Positions 1-8,891 of a stretch of 43,526 bases of DNA are shown here, piece by piece. The translations under genes and the position numbers were made by a program. The notes under the pieces are model-generated. The model did not search any database. It saw nothing but the letters and a program-made list of their open reading frames with translations, and was not told the DNA's origin. The stretch is from contig DASTWL010000031.1 in NCBI GenBank assembly GCA_035765895.1, forward strand, positions 1-43,526. The letters run 5' to 3'. Every line of letters starts with the position of its first letter. The stretch's first letter is position 1. Source of the DNA: Verrucomicrobiia bacterium (GTDB taxonomy: Bacteria; Verrucomicrobiota; Verrucomicrobiia; Limisphaerales; DSYF01).

Positions 1-481
1 ACACCGGCGATGCCGGATGCGTCACCGGCAGCATCTCGTGCGTGCCGTGGCAGTCCTTGCACGACGCCGCGGCGGACGCGCCGAGCTTGTGGCTCACGCC
101 GTGAATGCTGGCCGCGTATTGATTCGCCTCCGGGCCGTGGCAGCGCGCACAGTCAACCGACGCCACGGGTTTGTTGTCATCGGGATGCTGCGTGGTGATG
201 TCCTGGTGGCAACTGACGCAGTTGTTCGTGCGGTGGACCGAGGCCTTGAACAACGTCTCGTCCACGAACACGGAAACCTCCTTGCCATCCGGGCCGGTCT
301 TCGTGAGTGTCTTGTCGCTGTGACACTCCAGACAGTCACTGTTTTTAATGATGTCTGGCGCCGCGGCCGCCGCGTGGGCAAAAAAGAGGGCGCCGGCCAC
401 GAATGGCAGCGCCCCTGCAAAAAACGTCGTTCGCAGTTGTTGAATTCGCGTTACGTCACAAGCCGCCGGTGTGGCATTCAT
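1..481 (-). CDS. Multihaem c-type cytochrome, N-terminal part (runs off the window)
   Basis: This is an exported multihaem cytochrome; the 160 visible residues contain four CXXCH sites (CLECH, CVSCH, CARCH, CKDCH). The ATG at 481 begins MNATPAACDV and overlaps the end of the preceding seven-haem cytochrome gene by 26 bases in another frame. A hydrophobic stretch ending in FFAHAAAAAP is a likely signal peptide. No stop codon is reached before base 1, so the protein is longer. The spacing of haem sites with VFVDETLF and SVHRTNNCVSCH resembles periplasmic multihaem proteins that sometimes continue into a cytochrome b-like membrane domain, but that part would lie outside the window and is inference. 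The gene overlap and shared strand make it part of the same operon as the NrfD/ferredoxin module, so it is probably an electron carrier for that complex. Confidence 0.8.
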   Translation of the reverse strand, partial: MNATPAACDVTRIQQLRTTFFAGALPFVAGALFFAHAAAAAPDIIKNSDCLECHSDKTLTKTGPDGKEVSVFVDETLFKASVHRTNNCVSCHQDITTQHPDDNKPVASVDCARCHGPEANQYAASIHGVSHKLGASAAASCKDCHGTHEMLPVTHPASPV

Positions 482-1937
482 TGCACGTGGGATTCTCATC
501 CAGTTCGTCGCCCGGATGAGCAAACTTCAGCCCCTCGGGGTTCAGTTTTTCCAAATCTTTGCCCTGGCCCTGCGCCAGAATGGTGTGGCACGTGTTGCAA
601 TCGCTGGCCGTGACAGCCCGCTGGCCGTCGTCGGTCTTGTGCAGGCCGTCATGGCAGCGGAAGCAGCCGGGCCAGTCCTTGTGGCCGATGTTGTTGGGAT
701 ACGACCGCCAGTCGGCGTTCATCTCCGGGAAGAAATTCTCCTGATAGATGGTTTGCACGGCATCAATCGCACTGCGGACGCGCGGGTCGTTGGGATACTG
801 GCTGGCCAGATGCGTGGCGATGCCCTCCAGCGCCTCGGTTTCGTTCGTGTATTTTTGCGTCAGCACGTAAACCGCGTTCGTCTTGATCCAGCGCAGGCCC
901 GGGTCAATTTTGCCGAGTGACATGGCGAGGTTTACGGACGCGTTCGGCGTCTGGAACGTGTGCGCCGGGCGGTTGTGACAATCCATGCAATCCATACGGC
1001 GGATTTCCGCTTCCGGCGGCTGGTTGGTGAAGTTGCGTGTGTGATAAACAGTGACCACACCCTGCCGGTCCGTGACGCGCACCCACGGGATCTTCTGCCG
1101 GCTGGCGTCGGGCGCGTAATACTCCACCTTGTTGGCGATGTTCATGTGCCAGTGGATGCCGCCCACGGGACCGTGCGTCGGATCGGACCCGCCCACCTTC
1201 AGGAGCAGCCGCACGGAGAACGGCGTGTTGGTCGCATCGCCCAGAAAGTAGTTGTAAGTGCGGTCGAGGTTGCCGGTGAATTTCTTCGGCCAGTGACATT
1301 GCTCGCACGTCTCCTGGGCCGGGCGGAGGTTTTTGATCGGCGTCGGCACCGGGCGCGGATACTTGTTGAAGGCGACCGCGTAAAGCTGGTAGCTGCCGGA
1401 GAGCTTGGACTTCACGAACCACGTGGCGCCGGAGCCGATGTGGCATTCCACGCAGGCCACGCGCGCATGGGGACCGTGCTGATACGAGACCAGCTCCGGC
1501 TTCATCACCGTGTGGCAGGCCTCGCCGCAAAAGGTGACCGACTCGGTAAAGTGATACGTGTGGTAGCTGCCCACCGCGGATATCAGCAGGAACAGCACGG
1601 CGCCGGTCAGGAAGAAGGCCATCATGCGCCGGTCACGCGGCCGGGACAAATCCACCACGATCCGGGGAAGCAATCCGCCGGCGGACGCGCCCCGACGACG
1701 ACGTTCGCGCCAGACGCCCACGAACGTCAGGATGAGCCCCGTGACAAAGAAAAAGGGCGCGACAAAATAGGTCAGGATGCCGATATACGGGTTGGCCCCG
1801 TGCGAAAGGGCATCCATGGTGAACAGCAGCAACGTGGAAAACAGGCTGCCGATCACGACCACGAGGCCGGTCAAACTGAGCCAGTTGCGCAACAGCGATG
1901 GCCGCTGGGCTTTGGGGGTGGAGACATCTTGGTTCAT
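456..1937 (-). CDS. Seven-haem NapC/NirT-type membrane cytochrome c
   Basis: The 493-residue protein has three hydrophobic segments near residues 18-42, 51-75 and 105-124, followed by a long periplasmic haem domain. The segment FCGEACHTVMKPE ... VACVECH closely resembles the first haem pair of NapC/NirT/NrfH quinol dehydrogenases, including the Met after the first site. Haem sites are at residues 137-142 (CGEACH, a CX3CH spacing), 162 (CVECH), 211 (CEQCH), 317 (CMDCH), 425 (CFRCH), 447 (CNTCH) and 485 (CNECH). Classical NapC proteins have four haems and one membrane helix, so this is an enlarged relative. It likely passes electrons between menaquinol and periplasmic carriers. It sits between a monohaem cytochrome and another multihaem gene, with which it overlaps by 26 bases. 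Confidence 0.85.
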   Translation of the reverse strand: MNQDVSTPKAQRPSLLRNWLSLTGLVVVIGSLFSTLLLFTMDALSHGANPYIGILTYFVAPFFFVTGLILTFVGVWRERRRRGASAGGLLPRIVVDLSRPRDRRMMAFFLTGAVLFLLISAVGSYHTYHFTESVTFCGEACHTVMKPELVSYQHGPHARVACVECHIGSGATWFVKSKLSGSYQLYAVAFNKYPRPVPTPIKNLRPAQETCEQCHWPKKFTGNLDRTYNYFLGDATNTPFSVRLLLKVGGSDPTHGPVGGIHWHMNIANKVEYYAPDASRQKIPWVRVTDRQGVVTVYHTRNFTNQPPEAEIRRMDCMDCHNRPAHTFQTPNASVNLAMSLGKIDPGLRWIKTNAVYVLTQKYTNETEALEGIATHLASQYPNDPRVRSAIDAVQTIYQENFFPEMNADWRSYPNNIGHKDWPGCFRCHDGLHKTDDGQRAVTASDCNTCHTILAQGQGKDLEKLNPEGLKFAHPGDELDENPTCNECHTGGL

Positions 1938-2002
1938 ACGTCCTGGTCCTGCGTTACAACTCCCGCCGATCCGGTCTGCGACCGTGCATTGTTCCTAAAC
2001 AA

Positions 2003-2033
2003 CCGCCGCGCCTCGGCACAGACAGCGCGGCGG
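2003..2033 (-). terminator. GC-rich hairpin between cytochrome genes; possible attenuator
   Basis: A perfect 9-bp stem (2003-2011 with 2025-2033) closes a 13-base loop 18 bases after the stop of the monohaem cytochrome gene. In the minus-strand transcript the stem is followed only by a short TTGTTT tract, so it is at best a weak terminator, attenuator or mRNA-stabilising structure that would change the ratio of upstream and downstream products. Confidence 0.35.
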
Positions 2034-2050
2034 CAAAATGTTGGCCTGAC

Positions 2051-2380
2051 TTACTTCTTGAACGAGCGCATGTGCTCCACAAGCCCCTTGATATCTGCGT
2101 CGCTCAAATCCTCGGCCGGCTTCATCAAAATCTTGCCGTCCTTGTCCTTCAACCCTTCCTTGATCGCTTTGGTGGCGGCGGCATCGGTCAGGGCTTCCTG
2201 CACCTTGGCGTCGGTGTAATCCTTCGCCCCCATCTTCTGGCCCATCTTGGTCTGCCCCTTGCCATCGGCGCCGTGACATTTCTGGCAGCCCTTTTCATAG
2301 AGTGCCTTGGCGTCTTCAGCAGTTGCGCAAACAGCCGTAACCACCAACAACGCCAGACCCAGCAGCAGTTTTCGTTTCAT
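2051..2380 (-). CDS. Periplasmic monohaem cytochrome c (class I)
   Basis: The 109-residue protein has a signal peptide (MKRKLLLGLALLVVTAVCATAE) and one haem site, CQKCH, followed by GADGKGQTKMG. A distal Met in ILMKPAEDLSD is the likely sixth haem ligand, and the C-terminal helix DADIKGLVEHMRSF is typical of small class I cytochromes. It is probably a soluble electron shuttle for the NrfD/ferredoxin and multihaem proteins encoded around it. It is a clear paralogue of the monohaem cytochrome at 5221-5541, sharing the KCHG-DGKGQTKMG and EGLKDK segments. It lies 117 bases downstream of the NrfD gene; no strong terminator is visible in that gap. Confidence 0.88.
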   Translation of the reverse strand: MKRKLLLGLALLVVTAVCATAEDAKALYEKGCQKCHGADGKGQTKMGQKMGAKDYTDAKVQEALTDAAATKAIKEGLKDKDGKILMKPAEDLSDADIKGLVEHMRSFKK

Positions 2381-2497
2381 GGCTTTCGTCTTTTGTTTGT
2401 TGTTGTTACTGGCGCGACGGAACAGATCGCATCAGTGAAACCAGTCTCGGCGCAAACCAGCCGGCGGGCATTGCCTATCTTGGCAAAGGCTTACCCT

Positions 2498-3736
2498 CTA
2501 TTGCCGGACGATGGCAGAGACCGGTGGGCGGCCGGTCTCCTGCCCGCGCTCCGCCAGAAACAATTTCACCATCATGATCAGAATGAGAAAGGGCAGCAGC
2601 AGCAGGAAGCCGCCCATGAACCAGCCTTCCATGCCCGCAAAATCCATCTTGTAACTCATGAAGCCCCGCAGGCTCTTGGAAAACAACTGGCCGCCAATGA
2701 CCACGTTCCAGCGCATGGCCAGCACGCCGGCGAGAATGAGCACCGCCGCCACAAAATAGAGACGGCGACGGACCGGCTCGGCCACGAACCGGCGCAGGAT
2801 TTGCAGGCATCCCAGGACCAGCAGCGGCACCAGCGTGCCCAGCAGCGCCTGGCCGATGTTAAGCGTGTAAAACAATTTGTGCGTGGCCACGTGACGGATG
2901 ACCTGGAAGCTTTCGTCGGCGGAATAAATGCGATGGATCCAATCCAGGCCCTCAATCGCCGCGTCAATCACGAGCGCGTAGAACAGGAACATGCCCATCG
3001 CATCCAGGCAGCGCATGTCGACCGGTTTGCGGCGCACCCAGTTCAAAACGACATAATTGAAGACGCACAGCGCAATGCCCGAAACCATGGCCGACAGGAT
3101 GAAAATAACCGGCATGAGCACGTTGCCCCACCACGGATTGGCCTTGATCGACCCGAAGATGAAGCCCACGTAGCCGTGCAACAAGAAGGCGGAGGGGATG
3201 CCCAGGATGGAGATGATCCAGCCGATTTTGTGATCCAGCTTCACCGCCTTTTCCGACTCGTCGGAAACGCCGAGCAAAAGCAACCGATACAACAATCCGC
3301 GCAAACCGGTCTCGGTTCGGGCCCAGACCACAAAGTCCTGCCGGTAATCAAACCACAGCTCCAGCAGCAGCACCGCCATCAAATACCACGCATACACAAA
3401 CCCGAAGATGGCCATCGGCGACGTCAGATGCGGCGTCATCATGATCTGATAGCACCGCTCGGGATGTCCCAGATGGAACAGCAGCGGCAGTGTGGCGCAG
3501 AGCAGAAAGGACAGCGCGGTCAGCAAGGAAAGCCGATACACCGGCTCCAGCGCCTGCACACGGAAGACCCGCACCAGCGAGGCCATGATGAACGCACCCG
3601 CCACCAGGCCGGTGACATAGGGATAGACCACGATCAAAAAACTCCACAACGGCTCGCGCGTGGCTTCGTTGGGATAAACATATCCTTGGAAATGCGGAAT
3701 CGCTTCCACGACTGCATTGGTCAAATCGGCCGCCAT
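2498..3736 (-). CDS. NrfD/PsrC-type quinone-interacting membrane subunit
   Basis: The 412-residue, strongly hydrophobic protein has about eight to ten membrane segments. These include LWSFLIVVYPYVTGLVAGAF near the N terminus, where NrfD proteins carry a similar YP-VTGL-AGA pattern, and GGFLLLLPFLILIMMVKLFL near the C terminus. NrfD-family subunits (NrfD, PsrC, DsrP, QrcD, ActC, CbcU) exchange electrons between menaquinone and a partner iron-sulfur subunit without carrying haem. The partner is present: the ferredoxin-like gene ends one base before this ATG. The charged loop FLLHGYVGFIFG and the acidic residues in helices resemble the quinone site of the family, but no site is assigned. Whether the complex oxidises or reduces quinone cannot be read from sequence. 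Confidence 0.9.
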   Translation of the reverse strand: MAADLTNAVVEAIPHFQGYVYPNEATREPLWSFLIVVYPYVTGLVAGAFIMASLVRVFRVQALEPVYRLSLLTALSFLLCATLPLLFHLGHPERCYQIMMTPHLTSPMAIFGFVYAWYLMAVLLLELWFDYRQDFVVWARTETGLRGLLYRLLLLGVSDESEKAVKLDHKIGWIISILGIPSAFLLHGYVGFIFGSIKANPWWGNVLMPVIFILSAMVSGIALCVFNYVVLNWVRRKPVDMRCLDAMGMFLFYALVIDAAIEGLDWIHRIYSADESFQVIRHVATHKLFYTLNIGQALLGTLVPLLVLGCLQILRRFVAEPVRRRLYFVAAVLILAGVLAMRWNVVIGGQLFSKSLRGFMSYKMDFAGMEGWFMGGFLLLLPFLILIMMVKLFLAERGQETGRPPVSAIVRQ

Positions 3737-3737
3737 G

Positions 3738-4547
3738 TTAACGCACCTCCTTGTCTATGCCGGCATACTGCACCCGCGGTTCCGTGCCGAGATACGGTTT
3801 GAGGCTTTGCACGCGGTGCTCGGCAAAGAATTTCTGCAACGGATCGTCCGGCACCGGGTTTTTCAAGTCCCCGAAGATGCGGGCCTGCGACGGACACACC
3901 TCCACGCACGCCGGCTTCAATCCGCGGGTGATCCGATGATAACACAACGTGCACTTGTTGGCCGTGTGCGTGACCGGGTCCATGAAGCGACAGCCGTAGG
4001 GACATGCCTGGATGCAGAAGCCGCAACCGATGCAGTAATTTGGATCCACGAGCACGACGCCGTCCGGCGACTCAAACGTGGCGCCCACCGGGCACACCTG
4101 CGAACAGGGAGAATGCACGCAGAGATTGCACAGCTTGGGCACAAAGAACGACTGGAGGATGTCCTCCTTGGGCACCGGCAAGTCAGGGAATCCATGCATC
4201 CCCCCTTCCGGCGAATCCACCAGCACCTCGCCCCGTGTTTCCGCCGAGCCGGGCTCCGGTTTTTTGACAATGTAACGCTCGATCCATGTGCGGTAGTAGG
4301 GCCCGATCGGCACGTTGTTCTCCTTCTTGCACGCCTCCACACAGGAGCCGCAACCAATGCAACGGTTCGCATCAATCGCCATTTGCCACTTGTGCTTTGA
4401 GGGATCATACCCCTTGGGTGCGCCGGCGGAGGCAAACACTTTCTGCACGGTGGTCTTGGCCGCTTTGGCGGCGGGCGCAGCCGCCACGGCAGCGGCGGCC
4501 AGCCCCAGTTTGGCAAGCAGACTGCGACGGGTGATTGGCTCTTTCAT
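3738..4547 (-). CDS. Tat-exported four-cluster 4Fe-4S ferredoxin subunit
   Basis: The 269-residue protein starts with a twin-arginine signal (TRRSLLAKLGL then an Ala-rich stretch), so it is folded before export and acts on the periplasmic side. Cysteine groups CIGCGSCVEAC (63-73), CNLCVHSPCSQVC (140-152), CIGCGFCIQAC (172-182) and CTLCYH...CVEVC (199-218) provide ligands for four 4Fe-4S clusters, the DmsB/NrfC/PsrB/DsrO pattern. The start at 4547 is chosen because its ATG overlaps the TGA of the upstream tetrahaem gene (ATGA) and it is followed at once by the Tat motif; a longer in-frame extension exists but lacks any signal. It should wire the NrfD subunit to the multihaem cytochromes. No molybdopterin catalytic subunit is visible nearby. 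Confidence 0.93.
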   Translation of the reverse strand: MKEPITRRSLLAKLGLAAAAVAAAPAAKAAKTTVQKVFASAGAPKGYDPSKHKWQMAIDANRCIGCGSCVEACKKENNVPIGPYYRTWIERYIVKKPEPGSAETRGEVLVDSPEGGMHGFPDLPVPKEDILQSFFVPKLCNLCVHSPCSQVCPVGATFESPDGVVLVDPNYCIGCGFCIQACPYGCRFMDPVTHTANKCTLCYHRITRGLKPACVEVCPSQARIFGDLKNPVPDDPLQKFFAEHRVQSLKPYLGTEPRVQYAGIDKEVR

Positions 4548-5005
4548 GGAACCTCCGAGGGGGCGTGGGGCACGTGACACTCGACGCACTTTTGCCCCGA
4601 ATAATGATCCCGAACGTTGATTTGTTTCAGCCACTTGGGGCGGGTGGGGTTCTCCTCGTGGCAACGCAGACACGACGTCGTGTTTTTCTTGTCCGGCTTG
4701 AATTTGTCCACGTCTGGCGCATCGACATGCTGCTGGCCAGGTCCGTGACAGACTTCGCAGGAAAGCGACTTGTGTTCGAACTTGGCGAGTTGCTTCGCCT
4801 TGTCCTCGTGACATTCGGAGCAGGCTTCCTTGCCGGCGTAATGGCGCGGCAGGCTGGCCCGCTCCTCGAGCGCATCCCCGCGATACCAGCCGAATTCACC
4901 GAAGGAGGGCGGCGTGAGAAAATAGCGCGCCGCCAGGTAGCTGCCCACGATTCCCATGGTCAGAAGAACCAGACGAACAATTTGTGGAGGAAGTTTGAAT
5001 CGCAT
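4544..5005 (-). CDS. Membrane-anchored tetrahaem cytochrome c
   Basis: The 153-residue protein has one N-terminal membrane anchor (about residues 8-30, VRLVLLTMGIVGSYLAARYF) and four haem sites: CSECH 62-66, CEVCH 83-87, CLRCH 112-116, CVECH 140-144. The ATG at 5005 is preferred over an in-frame one nine codons upstream because it places the hydrophobic anchor at the N terminus after MRFKLPPQ. Its stop overlaps the ferredoxin start by four bases, indicating translational coupling. It is the first gene of the operon and probably forms the cytochrome arm of the ferredoxin/NrfD complex, comparable in layout to Cbc- or Dsr-type cytochrome/ferredoxin/NrfD complexes. The exact family is not certain. 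Confidence 0.87.
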   Translation of the reverse strand: MRFKLPPQIVRLVLLTMGIVGSYLAARYFLTPPSFGEFGWYRGDALEERASLPRHYAGKEACSECHEDKAKQLAKFEHKSLSCEVCHGPGQQHVDAPDVDKFKPDKKNTTSCLRCHEENPTRPKWLKQINVRDHYSGQKCVECHVPHAPSEVP

Positions 5006-5161
5006 GGCCGCCTCTACATTCAGCCGGGTCATGTCCGCCTCATGCGGAACCGTTTGTCAGCTGTGGCACGACCGTAGAGGCGTTTGCCAGCTGCGACTCT
5101 CCGTTGCTTGGCGTTCTCTTCGCATATTTTGGCGGTGGCGTTCAAACGATGCGAAGCGGGC

Positions 5162-5198
5162 GCCAAAAAGAAAAAGCCACGGACCGAAGTCCGTGGCT
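5162..5198 (-). terminator. Rho-independent terminator after the monohaem cytochrome gene
   Basis: A perfect 10-bp stem (5175-5184 with 5189-5198, loop CGAA) is followed in the minus-strand transcript by TTTTTCTTTTTGG. It begins 23 bases after the stop codon at 5221. This separates the single cytochrome gene from the operon that starts at 5005. Confidence 0.92.
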
Positions 5199-5220
5199 CA
5201 AACGCAGAAAGGAAACCGGT

Positions 5221-5541
5221 TTACTTTTTCAAGCCCGCGAGATGCTCAACGGCGGCCTTGATCTCCTCATCGGAAAGACTCTCCCCAAACGCCTTCATCT
5301 GCGTCTTGCCCTCTTTGTCCTTCAGGCCCTCTTTGACCGCCTTCACGCCTTCCTCCACCTTGATGGCTTCCTTGGTGTAGTCCTTGCACCCAAGTTTCTC
5401 GCCCATCTTGGTCTGGCCCTTGCCGTCTTCACCGTGGCACTTGGCGCAGTTCTTGGCATAAACTTCACCGCCGTCAGCCGCCTTGGCACTCAAAATCGCC
5501 GCACAGGCGAACGCACTCGCGAGCAGGATGATCTTTTTCAT
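5221..5541 (-). CDS. Periplasmic monohaem cytochrome c, paralogue of 2051-2380
   Basis: The 106-residue protein has a signal peptide (MKKIILLASAFACAAILSAKA), a single CAKCH haem site followed by GEDGKGQTKMGEKLG, and a second Met in TQMKAFGESLSD that could be the axial ligand. The ATG at 5541 is chosen because it starts the signal peptide; the longer reading frame upstream shows no coding character. It forms its own unit: an AT-rich promoter-like stretch lies upstream and a strong terminator lies downstream. The likely role is a diffusible electron carrier working with the adjacent respiratory operon, possibly as an alternative partner to the second cytochrome. Confidence 0.88.
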   Translation of the reverse strand: MKKIILLASAFACAAILSAKAADGGEVYAKNCAKCHGEDGKGQTKMGEKLGCKDYTKEAIKVEEGVKAVKEGLKDKEGKTQMKAFGESLSDEEIKAAVEHLAGLKK

Positions 5542-5592
5542 AATGTTTTGTGTGTTGTGTCGGACGCCACGCTTGGGGCGCTTTGAACATAT

Positions 5593-5731: not shown

Positions 5732-6748
5732 TCACTCACGCACAGCGTTAAGACCGCTGCGGACAATCCGGTCAATCAACTGCGGATATTCGATTCCGGC
5801 TTTGCGCGCTGATTGCGCAAAGTCCTCGTCCGCGGCCAGGATGGGATTGGGGTTGGCCTCGATGAAGTAGATTTCGTTGCGCGGCGTCACCCGCAGGTCG
5901 ATGCGGGCGTAGCCATCGATGGTCAACAGGCGATAGATGCGCTTGCAGGTCTGCTCGATGGCGCGAGCCAGCACCGGGTCGAGGCCTTCGGCAAACTGGT
6001 TTTGCAACCCCCAGCGCTGGCGATAGCTCTCATCCCACTTGGCCCGGTAAGTGGCGATTTTGGGTTCGTCCGGCGGAACCTCCTTGAACACCAGCTCGCG
6101 AATCGGCAGCGCCTGCAGCCGCTGGTTGCCGAGAATGCTGACGTAAAGCTCCCGCCCTTCGATGTATTCCTCGGCGATGACGTCGTTGTCGTATTTCTCG
6201 TGAATGAACTGCACACGCTCGCGAAACTGATCATCACTCTCGACAAACGAAGCCTGGGATATGCCGTAGGAGGCCTCCTCCTTCAACGGCTTGATCAGAA
6301 TGGGAAACTGCAGCCGCCTGGGACGCACGCCGCGGCGCCCGCGCGGGATGACCGTGAACTCGGGCACGCGGATGCGGTGGTAGCCCAGGATTTTTTTGGA
6401 GATGGCCTTGTGTTTGCAGAGCGTCAATCCGGTGGAGCCACAACCGGTGAAGGGAACGCCGTGCATTTCGAGAAAGGAAACAATGTTTTGGTCGAATGCC
6501 CGATTGTTGCGGAACTGGTCGGCGAGATTGAAGATGATGTCGGGCTGGAAGCTTTGCAGCTTCTGCCGCAGCAGTTCGAGATCATCAAAGATGACCAGGT
6601 GTTCGGTGAGATGGCCGAGCTGCCCGAAGGCCGCCAGCACGTCGGCCTCCGTCTTGCGGTCCCCGGCCAGATACGTGGCCAGATCATGATCGGGCGGGAC
6701 GGGTTCCACCGCGTCACACAGGACAAGGATTTTCAACTTGTTCTTCAC
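5732..6748 (-). CDS. ATP-grasp ligase, D-Ala-D-Ala-ligase-like
   Basis: The 338-residue protein has the ATP-grasp layout. An N-terminal Rossmann-like part (KILVLCDAVEP..., DIIFNLADQF) ends in the GVPFTGCGSTGLTLCKHKAISKKIL segment that resembles the D-Ala ligase loop. The ATP-binding lysine segment FPILIKPLKEEASYGI follows, then the adenine-binding EEYIEGRELYVSILG. Last is the metal-binding end YARIDLRVTPRNEIYFIEANPNP, with the D-R and E-x-N-x-N residues of the family. Such enzymes join a carboxylate to an amine through an acyl-phosphate. It is unlikely to be the cell-wall Ddl, because the sequence differs in the substrate loop and no mur genes are nearby. It starts with GTG six bases after the metallopeptidase gene, so the two form an operon. 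The substrate is unknown. Confidence 0.85.
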   Translation of the reverse strand: MKNKLKILVLCDAVEPVPPDHDLATYLAGDRKTEADVLAAFGQLGHLTEHLVIFDDLELLRQKLQSFQPDIIFNLADQFRNNRAFDQNIVSFLEMHGVPFTGCGSTGLTLCKHKAISKKILGYHRIRVPEFTVIPRGRRGVRPRRLQFPILIKPLKEEASYGISQASFVESDDQFRERVQFIHEKYDNDVIAEEYIEGRELYVSILGNQRLQALPIRELVFKEVPPDEPKIATYRAKWDESYRQRWGLQNQFAEGLDPVLARAIEQTCKRIYRLLTIDGYARIDLRVTPRNEIYFIEANPNPILAADEDFAQSARKAGIEYPQLIDRIVRSGLNAVRE

Positions 6749-6754
6749 GGAAAA

Positions 6755-7774
6755 TTATTTGGTGCGTTTGAACTTGCCGGTGAACAGGTGGTTCATGACG
6801 AGGGTGGTGATGTAGGCGGACACCTGCAAGTTCTGCCGCGGATCGTAGGCCTTGATGTGCAGGCCAAGCGCGTCACAGCGGTTTATCAAGCGGACCAGCA
6901 ACTGGTCCACACGATAGCGGTTTTCATTTGTCCACTGGCAAACGGCGTTGGTCAGCTGGTGACGGTGGCGGCGGAGATAATCGGAGGCCAGCACGCGGCC
7001 GTCCGCTCCGGGCGGTCCGTCGAACAACTGGCGCAGGTCGTTGTCGTAAAAATCCGGGAACGAGTGCTCGTAAGCCTTGCGCTTGCGCGCGTAGTAGGTC
7101 TTGAGCTTGACGCGCAGGCAGTCGTAATCCGGCACGCGATACTGGGGTTGATGCACCGGCGGCTTGCCGACGAGAGAGCGCATGAGTTCGTCCACGTATT
7201 CAAGCTTGTGAACCGCCTTCCAGCCGGCGTAACGCTGGCGCCAGTTCAGCCCCGGGGTTAGCCAGACCGCAAAGGTTTCCGCGAAGTCCTCGTCGGGATG
7301 ACTTTGGGCATACCAATCGTCCAGATGCACCACGAAACTCCGGCTATAGGGTCGCGGACGGTAGAAGGAAGGCGTTTCCTCCGCCGAGGTGCGCCCGAAA
7401 AATCGCTGCCATTTCCGCTTCTTGAACACCTGATAGGCATACGCATACGCGTGCGCCGCCTCGTGCCGGATGAGCTTCATGAACCATTCGGGCGTTTCTC
7501 CTTCCACTTCGAGGATGATTTTCCGCTCCAGTTCGCGCAGCCGGTCATGGGCCAGAAAAAAGGGAATGAAAATCGCCGGAACGCCCACGGGCACAAACCA
7601 TTCGTCCCCCAAATGACAGGGCGGATGGAAGCTCAGCCCCTGCTGCGTCAGTTCGTCATACAACTGCCGGACCAATGGCTCGAGCGGACCGCCGGCGAGC
7701 TTGAGCCCGAGCGTTGAGATGCGCTGTTCGAGCAACTCGTTGTCGCTCAGGCTCGCCCAGTCCGGGTTGTCCAT
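6755..7774 (-). CDS. Putative zinc metallopeptidase paired with the ATP-grasp ligase
   Basis: The 339-residue protein has an HEAAHAYAYAY zinc motif (H104, E105, H108) and a downstream HPDEDFAETFAVWL segment (about 159-172) whose acidic residue probably is the third zinc ligand. This arrangement is seen in a group annotated as putative zinc-binding metallopeptidases. No signal peptide or membrane segment is visible, so it is probably cytoplasmic. The C-terminal part is rich in Arg, Lys and aromatic residues and is not recognised. It starts at ATG 7774, is the first gene of the operon and is followed at six bases by the ATP-grasp ligase. The pairing suggests synthesis and trimming of a peptide or an amide-linked compound, which is inference. 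Confidence 0.72.
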   Translation of the reverse strand: MDNPDWASLSDNELLEQRISTLGLKLAGGPLEPLVRQLYDELTQQGLSFHPPCHLGDEWFVPVGVPAIFIPFFLAHDRLRELERKIILEVEGETPEWFMKLIRHEAAHAYAYAYQVFKKRKWQRFFGRTSAEETPSFYRPRPYSRSFVVHLDDWYAQSHPDEDFAETFAVWLTPGLNWRQRYAGWKAVHKLEYVDELMRSLVGKPPVHQPQYRVPDYDCLRVKLKTYYARKRKAYEHSFPDFYDNDLRQLFDGPPGADGRVLASDYLRRHRHQLTNAVCQWTNENRYRVDQLLVRLINRCDALGLHIKAYDPRQNLQVSAYITTLVMNHLFTGKFKRTK

Positions 7775-7874
7775 GGGCCAAGGCTAACACGCCGTCGCAC
7801 CGGCTCACAAGCGCCCCCTGCGCGCGTTTTGCCTTTTGACGCTAAGGCTCGTTTGGGATACGGTCGGAAGACTC

Positions 7875-8891
7875 ATGAGAGCTTCGTTTCAACGCACCTT
7901 CTGGCTCGGCACGCTGGCCGTGCTCGCGTTGTGCGAAGGAGTGCTGGCGGATGGTGAACCGATGCGGCCGATCGAGTATTCCGCCCCGAAAGACACCCGC
8001 GGATTGGGCACGGCGGGCTCACTGCTTCCCGGTCACTCGCCGCTGGATCAACTGGAGTCCGACTTGAACAACCCGCTCAAGGCGCCGGTATCCGGCAATT
8101 CACTGGGCGGCATGATCATGACCACCCCGCCGCCTGTTCCGCCCCCGGCCGTGCAAAACCCGAAACTCAAGCAGCTCATTCAAAAGGAAGAGGACTGGAT
8201 GTTTCTCAAGTCGGACGAAGTTTTTTCCATCAAATCCCCCGACGACCAATACAAGCCTGAGGAGCTGACTCCGGACGGCCGGAAGCGCAGCGAGCTGCGG
8301 CCGATGGAACGCCGCATGCTGGACATCTTCAGCGGAAACAACCCGGCCCAGACCAACGTGGCGGGCGCCGGCGCCGCCTTCGGAGGTTCGCCATTCGATG
8401 GCAATGACAGTTATCCGTCAACCTTGAGTCCGGTGGAGAAGGGCATCCGCCGCGCCTTCGGTCTTGACGCCGCGGGTTCCGCCGGCCGTGGCTCGGCTGA
8501 CGCCGCAAGTTTTTTCGGCTTCAACAACGGTTACAAGCCGCCGGCCAAGCTGAGTGATGCGGAATTGCAGCGCGCGGAAGACTTCAAGAAAATCCTCGAC
8601 TTCAACAACACCCGGCCGGATGCCACGGCGCCCCTGGCGGACAGCCCGTTCGCCTCGCCTTACGTGGACAGTTCATTCTACGATCCCCCAAAGCCGACGG
8701 CGCCCACACTGACGCCCGCGCCTTCCGCCCGGGCCAGTGGCAATTCGTTGAATGGCAGCTTGAGTGACAACACCACCACGGCGCCATGGTGGACCCCGGC
8801 AACGCAGCCCACGCCACCTACGCCGCCGCCCACCCGGGCGATGCCGGCGCCAGTGTCGCCGTTCATGAACATCCCGCGCCGCAACTTCTGA
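7875..8891 (+). CDS. Secreted proline-rich protein of unknown function
   Basis: The 338-residue protein has a signal peptide (MRASFQRTFWLGTLAVLALCEGVLADGE) and then a low-complexity Pro/Ala/Ser/Asn-rich chain with segments such as PPPVPPPAVQNP and PTPPTPPPTRAMPAP. The ATG at 7875 is chosen because GGAAG lies a few bases upstream and the signal peptide follows directly; an in-frame TTG at 7836 would lengthen the N terminus without reason. No catalytic motif is visible. A central stretch (RRMLDIFSGNN, EDFKKILDFNN) has helical character. It converges on the pilB gene with 15 bases between stops and is divergent from the metallopeptidase operon. No function can be assigned. Confidence 0.72.
   Translation: MRASFQRTFWLGTLAVLALCEGVLADGEPMRPIEYSAPKDTRGLGTAGSLLPGHSPLDQLESDLNNPLKAPVSGNSLGGMIMTTPPPVPPPAVQNPKLKQLIQKEEDWMFLKSDEVFSIKSPDDQYKPEELTPDGRKRSELRPMERRMLDIFSGNNPAQTNVAGAGAAFGGSPFDGNDSYPSTLSPVEKGIRRAFGLDAAGSAGRGSADAASFFGFNNGYKPPAKLSDAELQRAEDFKKILDFNNTRPDATAPLADSPFASPYVDSSFYDPPKPTAPTLTPAPSARASGNSLNGSLSDNTTTAPWWTPATQPTPPTPPPTRAMPAPVSPFMNIPRRNF

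What the first reader, a model, noticed from the sequence alone, without database searches (positions are those of the whole stretch)
5732..7774. Two-gene ATP-grasp ligase and zinc metallopeptidase operon
Seen in sequence: a putative zinc metallopeptidase (HEAAH plus downstream DEDFAETF) and an ATP-grasp ligase six bases apart, in the same strand and not near cell-wall genes. Established: ATP-grasp enzymes make amide bonds and often act with peptidases in peptide natural-product or modification pathways. Inference: a conserved pair making and trimming a peptide-like compound.
Basis: partly seen in the sequence, partly recalled or inferred. Interest (0 to 1): 0.55.

Follow-up and report, generated by a model that had tools for sequence, protein, structure and literature searches.

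The report
Conserved ligase and metallopeptidase gene pair
Two neighbouring genes, one for an enzyme that joins small molecules through an amide bond and one for an enzyme that probably cuts such bonds, travel together across many distantly related bacterial groups and share their history, but what they make and cut is still unknown.

Summary
On the minus strand a 339-aa HEAAH metallopeptidase (6755-7774) is followed after 6 bases by a 338-aa ATP-grasp ligase (5732-6748). The pair is a real, strongly conserved two-gene unit. Among 80 named loci found with the peptidase, 75 carry the ligase immediately downstream on the same strand, in 11 phyla. Four of the other five run off a contig end; in the fifth the ligase lies elsewhere in the genome. 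The two proteins share their history (distance correlation 0.94) and no third gene travels with them. The ligase has the D-Ala-D-Ala ligase fold but is not an ordinary Ddl: it forms its own clade, and the genome has a separate Ddl. It keeps the ATP/Mg residues but has replaced residues that in Ddl hold the second D-Ala. The peptidase is a distant Peptidase_Mx-type zincin; HExxH and a Tyr-x6-Glu motif spaced as in PPEP-1 and lethal factor are invariant in 103 of 103 relatives, so it is probably active. Best reading: a cytosolic make-and-cut pair acting on a small peptide-like compound, substrate unknown. I found no description of the pair in the papers searched.

The parts
6755..7774 (-). Zinc metallopeptidase gene, 339 aa, first gene of the pair; distant Peptidase_Mx (PF15887)-type zincin, no N-terminal hydrophobic signal by eye
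   Evidence: ORF; PF15887 22.3 bits, below cut-off; all 24 aligned relatives match PF15887 at E <= 0.01; model pLDDT 86.5
7451..7465 (-). HEAAH zinc-binding motif, residues 104-108
   Evidence: H104, E105, H108 in 103 of 103 aligned peptidases
7289..7312 (-). YAQSHPDE, residues 155-162: candidate catalytic Tyr155 and third zinc ligand Glu162, followed by the DFAETF helix
   Evidence: Y155, H159, E162, D163, E166, T167 each in 103 of 103; same YAxxxPxEDxAE pattern aligned in 4l7a; spacing compared with PPEP-1/lethal factor, whose ligand numbers are recalled
6749..6754 (-). Six-base intergenic spacer
   Evidence: in relatives 67 of 75 spacings lie between -11 and +20 bases, starts estimated
5732..6748 (-). 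ATP-grasp ligase gene of the Ddl fold, 338 aa, second gene of the pair
   Evidence: ORF; PF07478 E 9.4e-30; model pLDDT 90.3, pTM 0.90; VIA Z 32.2 to 3r5x, 292 residues, rmsd 2.7
6035..6040 (-). Lys237-Trp238, at the Lys-Tyr (Y216 in E. coli DdlB) position of Ddl
   Evidence: K 40/40 and W 40/40 in the pair ligases, K 20/20 and Y 20/20 in Ddl
5822..5827 (-). Glu308-Asp309, replacing the Ser-Leu of Ddl that contacts the second D-Ala (role recalled)
   Evidence: E/D in 39 of 40 and D/E in 40 of 40 pair ligases; S in 20/20 and L in 19/20 Ddl

Best explanation
The two genes form a bicistronic, accessory, cytosolic two-enzyme module. The ligase activates a carboxylate as an acyl phosphate with ATP and joins it to an amine, giving a small peptide-like amide. 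Its pocket is not the D-Ala-D-Ala pocket: the second-substrate site carries a conserved acidic pair, which suggests an amine-rich or otherwise different nucleophile. The zinc peptidase works on the same compound or its precursor, most likely hydrolysing the amide to set its level or trim it. Shown: the conserved pairing, shared history, the ligase fold (predicted) and the intact catalytic residues. Inferred: that both enzymes act on one compound, that the substrate is small, and that the peptidase cuts the ligase's product.
For: Linkage: 75 of 80 loci in 11 phyla, same strand, directly downstream. Four of the five others end at the contig edge; in the fifth (L087) and in G387, a genome of the window's genus, both genes are kept though apart. 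All 34 phylum genomes with the peptidase also have a ligase hit. Peptidase and ligase distances correlate at 0.94 over 72 loci; best of 1000 permutations 0.09. In the divergent (35-40% identity) peptidase group the partner ligase lies convergently instead in 10 of 13 genomes, so pairing goes along with a different gene order there (9 of the 13 placed in the tree). No third gene: apart from reading-frame shadows of the two genes, no ORF cluster spans more than 10 of 80 loci; among 86 nearest neighbours no Pfam family is matched by more than 4; neighbour strands look random (27 of 45 and 23 of 45). Active sites intact: 103 of 103 peptidases, and the ATP/Mg residues R282, D284, E297, N299 in 40 of 40 ligases.
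Against: No direct evidence of substrate or product. The peptidase could act before the ligase, not after it. One genome, G056 (about 94% complete), has a clade-member ligase and no peptidase hit. Three of the 34 phylum genomes have the ligase unlinked; in one of them, G124, the best ligase is a long-branch 27% match outside the pair clade. The peptidase fold match is weak (best Foldseek E 0.23).
Confidence: 0.45

Rival explanations
1. Supply model: the peptidase first releases or trims a peptide from a cellular protein and the ligase then modifies that peptide's end. The enzymes act in series, peptidase first.
For: The peptidase is the upstream gene in all 75 co-directional named loci. The graspetide survey PMC8939145 (passages read) proposes this for its ATP-grasp branches 7 and 8, which lie beside peptidases without precursor genes. 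The peptidase core weakly resembles endopeptidases (PPEP, lethal factor).
Against: Gene order does not show the order of action. The ligases of that survey are graspetide-type; the one here has the Ddl fold, whose known members use small substrates (recalled).
Confidence: 0.25
2. Writer and eraser of a protein tail: the ligase adds an amino acid to the C-terminus or a side chain of a cellular protein and the peptidase removes it.
For: Strict two-gene unit with no recurring transporter or precursor; both proteins look cytosolic by eye. ATP-grasp enzymes such as RimK modify protein ends (named in PMC8939145).
Against: The ligase is Ddl-like (VIA Z about 29-32) and Ddl pockets take small substrates (recalled).
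Confidence: 0.15
3. Secreted peptide natural product or RiPP: the pair is the core of a biosynthetic cluster.
For: ATP-grasp ligases occur in natural-product pathways (MysD, start of the abstract of PMC11983340 in the listing).
Against: No conserved transporter, precursor or tailoring gene in 80 loci or among 86 nearest neighbours; conservation in 11 phyla is unusual for such a cluster.
Confidence: 0.08
4. Cell-wall variant: a D-Ala-D-X ligase with a cytosolic dipeptidase that removes D-Ala-D-Ala, working like the VanA/VanX pair.
For: Ddl fold next to a zinc peptidase; VanA/VanX is a recalled precedent for such a pair.
Against: Ser-Leu of the D-Ala2 site replaced by acidic residues and Tyr216 by Trp; separate group from Ddl; the canonical Ddl lies in another cluster whose neighbours read, by eye, as MurB- and FtsQ-like; VanX has another fold (recalled); no cell-wall genes beside the pair.
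Confidence: 0.04

Closest known systems
D-alanine-D-alanine ligase (Ddl, PF07478; VanA/VanG)
   Same: Whole fold (Z about 29-32 over about 270-307 residues); ATP/Mg residues and the Ser of the GSSVG loop kept
   Different: Own clade; Tyr to Trp, Ser-Leu to Glu/Asp-Asp/Glu, Met to Arg and Leu to Asn at or near pocket positions; 114-121 bits against TIGR01205/NF002378, whose cut-offs are about 245
Peptidase_Mx / Peptidase_Mx1 putative zinc peptidases (PF15887, PF15890; solved relative 4l7a)
   Same: HExxH and YAxxxPxEDxAE pattern
   Different: Window protein below the family cut-off (22.3 vs 27 bits); cytosolic-looking, with a further C-terminal helical region
PPEP-1/Zmp1 and anthrax lethal factor catalytic domains
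   Same: Weak fold match of residues about 1-205 (VIA Z 6-8.6) and Tyr-x6-Glu spacing (ligand numbers recalled)
   Different: Those are secreted proteins (recalled); sequence identity 11-17%; Foldseek E above 0.2. A shared core shows no shared function.
Graspetide ATP-grasp branches 7 and 8 associated with peptidases (PMC8939145)
   Same: ATP-grasp beside a peptidase, no precursor gene
   Different: Those branches have several unrelated peptidase families; here a Ddl-type ligase goes with one peptidase family. The paper's main text held no 'D-Ala-D-Ala', 'Verrucomicrobi' or 'Planctomycet'.

Membership tests
Ddl (D-Ala-D-Ala ligase) | Ddl fold and PF07478 domain | tested here: met
   PF07478 104.1 bits, cut-off 24; VIA Z 32.2 on the predicted model
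Ddl (D-Ala-D-Ala ligase) | Score over the NCBIfam D-Ala-D-Ala ligase cut-offs | tested here: not met
   TIGR01205 114.2 of 245.65 bits; NF002378 121 of 243
Ddl (D-Ala-D-Ala ligase) | D-Ala pocket residues Tyr216 and Ser281-Leu282 (DdlB numbers, roles recalled) | tested here: not met
   W in 40/40; E/D in 39/40; D/E in 40/40, against Y 20/20, S 20/20, L 19/20 in Ddl
Ddl (D-Ala-D-Ala ligase) | Groups with Ddl of the same order in a tree | tested here: not met
   Pair ligases, 41 rows, one side of a branch (100/99); Ddl, 20 rows (100/100)
Ddl (D-Ala-D-Ala ligase) | Makes D-Ala-D-Ala | not testable with these tools
   needs an enzyme assay
Peptidase_Mx (PF15887) | Over the Pfam gathering score | tested here: not met
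   22.3 of 27 bits for the window protein; 24 of 24 aligned members match at E <= 0.01, best 1.8e-8
Gluzincin with lethal-factor/PPEP-like site | HExxH with a downstream Tyr-x6-Glu (rule recalled) | tested here: met
   103 of 103
Gluzincin with lethal-factor/PPEP-like site | Shared catalytic-domain fold | tested here: inconclusive
   VIA Z 6-8.6, Foldseek E >= 0.23
Graspetide/RiPP system | Precursor peptide gene conserved beside the ligase | tested here: inconclusive
   No recurring third ORF cluster of 80 aa or more; shorter ORFs were not scanned
VanA/VanX-type pair | VanX-type (M15) dipeptidase | tested here: not met
   Pfam scan of the peptidase listed only PF15887, PF15890 and PF16448, no M15 family

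The most novel reading that the evidence does not exclude
A previously undescribed, widespread two-enzyme system: a Ddl-fold ligase with a new substrate pocket and a dedicated cytosolic zinc peptidase that make and unmake an unknown amide metabolite (or reversible amide tag) in at least 11 phyla, passed on as a unit.
Probability: 0.45. Interest if true: 0.7.

Novelty: new variant of a known kind. Interest (0 to 1): 0.5.

Why it matters
By their family matches the ligase would be named 'D-alanine-D-alanine ligase' and the peptidase 'putative zinc-binding metallopeptidase', which hides that they are one unit. A module this compact (two genes, no other partner) and this widespread points to a common but unknown cell compound, and it can be tested with two purified proteins and two knock-outs.

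Tried and rejected
Ordinary Ddl: rejected by pocket residues, NCBIfam cut-offs and tree, and by the separate Ddl of this genome. Larger operon or biosynthetic cluster: no recurring neighbour. Plasmid-borne cassette: no peptidase match in 72,556 plasmid records and only 14 records with a ligase-like match (29-34% identity in the 10 rows seen). Known RNA family or tRNA in the window: none. One origin for all peptidase-linked ligases: the co-directional and convergent types do not form one clade in the best tree, but one clade is not rejected (p-AU 0.405), so I claim neither independent pairing nor a single pairing. Residue-level alignment of the Ddl N-terminal loop (Glu15 region) is too uncertain to use. 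The peptidase's C-terminal region (about 205-339) is barely covered by the matches and was not searched alone. Relatives beyond the best 80 of 446 confirmed hits were not examined, nor the 26 order genomes with a hit but no locus. Literature: the eight searches that ran gave no description of this pair. Iyer et al. 2009 on amidoligases, which may discuss ATP-grasp/zincin neighbourhoods, is not held and is only recalled.

Full report
Observation. The peptidase carries HEAAH (residues 104-108) and YAQSHPDEDFAETF (155-168). The ligase matches PF07478 with 104 bits; the peptidase matches PF15887 Peptidase_Mx at 22.3 bits, under the 27-bit cut-off. Downstream genes are a cytochrome c, a multihaem cytochrome, an Fe-S protein and NrfD; upstream are an ORF without a Pfam family and a T2SSE ATPase. 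There is no cell-wall gene beside the pair.

Linkage. In 387 genomes of the window's phylum the peptidase occurs in 34. By the coordinates the ligase lies next to it in 31 of these 34: downstream on the same strand in 21 and convergent in 10. In three (G309, G124, G098) it is elsewhere. A sequence check of the 30 loci returned found the ligase within about 4 kb in 28. In the window's order 46 of 196 genomes have the peptidase; of the 19 further loci returned, 18 have the ligase adjacent. The exception, G387 from the window's own genus, keeps an 83% identical ligase on another contig. In the collection of named genomes, 446 candidate stretches encode a relative and the best 80 were kept. Of these 80, 75 have the ligase directly downstream on the same strand, in Verrucomicrobiota, Planctomycetota, Nitrospirota, Acidobacteriota, Omnitrophota, Bdellovibrionota, Myxococcota, FCPU426, Pseudomonadota, Auribacterota and Nitrospinota (most are metagenome-assembled genomes, so a label may be wrong here and there). 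Of the other five, L043, L044, L086 and L091 end at the contig edge. L087 has no ligase in about 10 kb downstream, but its genome has a 45% ligase elsewhere; L043's genome has an 80% one, and the genomes of L044, L086 and L091 gave none. The collection was searched with the peptidase, so these 80 show what accompanies the peptidase, not how often the ligase occurs alone. In the phylum sample the ligase was found at E <= 1e-30 in 52 genomes: all 34 with the peptidase and 18 others. Of those 18 only G056 holds a match above 40% identity, and that ligase falls in the pair clade.

One unit and nothing more. Spacing is -11 to +20 bases in 67 of 75 loci, with starts estimated from alignment; the others range from -35 to 614, and one ligase (L061) is split between two frames. 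Over the 72 loci with near-full-length proteins, peptidase and ligase distances correlate at r = 0.94 against a maximum of 0.09 in 1000 permutations; the nearest neighbour is the same in 42 of 72. Shared ancestry of whole genomes also contributes to this value. ORF clustering found no other gene in more than 10 of 80 loci, once reading-frame shadows of the two genes are set aside; those shadows appear in up to 64 loci. The nearest gene on each side lies on the + strand in 27 of 45 and 23 of 45 loci (the 45 are those with at least 2.5 kb on both sides). Among 86 nearest neighbours (43 + 43; longer than 900 aa left out) no Pfam family is matched by more than 4.

Ligase. The model (pLDDT 90.3) matches Ddl structures over its full length (Z 32.2, 292 residues, rmsd 2.7 to 3r5x). 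The pair ligases (41 rows, including G056) and 20 Ddl of the window's order form separate, well supported groups. In 40 pair ligases against 20 Ddl, the invariant Arg, Asp, Glu and Asn of the ATP/Mg site and the Ser of the GSSVG loop are kept. Tyr216 (DdlB numbering, recalled; one search lists a Y216F structure) is Trp in 40 of 40. The Ser-Leu that contacts the second D-Ala (role recalled) is Glu/Asp in 39 of 40 and Asp/Glu in 40 of 40. A Met becomes Arg in 40 of 40 and a Leu becomes Asn in 40 of 40. The genome's own canonical Ddl lies on another contig, with neighbours that I read by eye as MurB- and FtsQ-like. So the enzyme probably works like Ddl (acyl phosphate, then amine attack; inferred from fold and residues) but is not a Ddl by the tested features.

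Peptidase. In 103 aligned relatives (80 named loci, 22 of the phylum loci and the window; L002-L008 were not put in) H104, E105, H108, Y155 and E162 are invariant. The model (pLDDT 86.5) gives weak matches to lethal factor (Z 8.6), PPEP (Z about 7) and the Bacteroides protein 4l7a (Z 6.2) over residues 1-205; Foldseek alone is not significant. A profile alignment places 4l7a's YAGSKPSEDIAE on the YAQSHPDEDFAE stretch (E 0.3). I take E162 as third zinc ligand and Y155 as the catalytic Tyr by analogy with PPEP-1; the ligand numbers are recalled.

Divergent partners. Nine peptidases (L022-L030) form one side of a branch (SH-aLRT 100); in seven of these loci the ligase is convergent. Their ligases group with the unlinked ligases of G098 and G309 and stand apart from the co-directional ones in the best tree, but one clade is not rejected (p-AU 0.405). 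They share K and W at 237-238 but have Gly in place of Ser160 (7 of 7) and lack the acidic pair, so the pocket argument above holds only for the co-directional type.

A hint from paralogues. Related ligases in other genomes of the phylum lie with a GNAT acetyltransferase and a lysine-2,3-aminomutase-type radical SAM enzyme (two ligases in L122, L123, L124; one in L126; two ligases and GNAT in L125). This suggests that this branch of Ddl-like ligases uses unusual small amines such as beta-lysine. It is a hint from association only, and no such gene accompanies the window's pair.

Interpretation. Most likely the pair makes and cuts a small amide compound in the cytosol (confidence 0.45). The strongest rival is that the peptidase supplies the ligase's substrate (0.25), as proposed for two graspetide ATP-grasp branches in PMC8939145 (passages read). 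Nothing here decides between them. In the papers searched (listings seen) I found no description of the pair; the library lacks most subscription journals.

Noticed in passing
L122:5384-9132; L126:1977-4666; L123:4444-8092; L124:1162-4994; L125:5429-7998: A different conserved gene group in the same phylum: one or two Ddl-like ligases, a GNAT acetyltransferase and a lysine-2,3-aminomutase-type radical SAM enzyme (no aminomutase seen beside L125's genes), reminiscent of N-acetyl-beta-lysine osmolyte genes but with added ligases.
   Followed up: partly
window 459-5586, minus strand: Respiratory gene run beside the pair: NapC/NirT-type multihaem cytochrome, NrfD, Fe-S protein, small multihaem cytochrome and cytochrome c.
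   Followed up: no
   Followed up: no
window 7836-8891, plus strand: Divergent ORF with no Pfam family, proline-rich and with a hydrophobic stretch near the N-terminus by eye.
   Followed up: no
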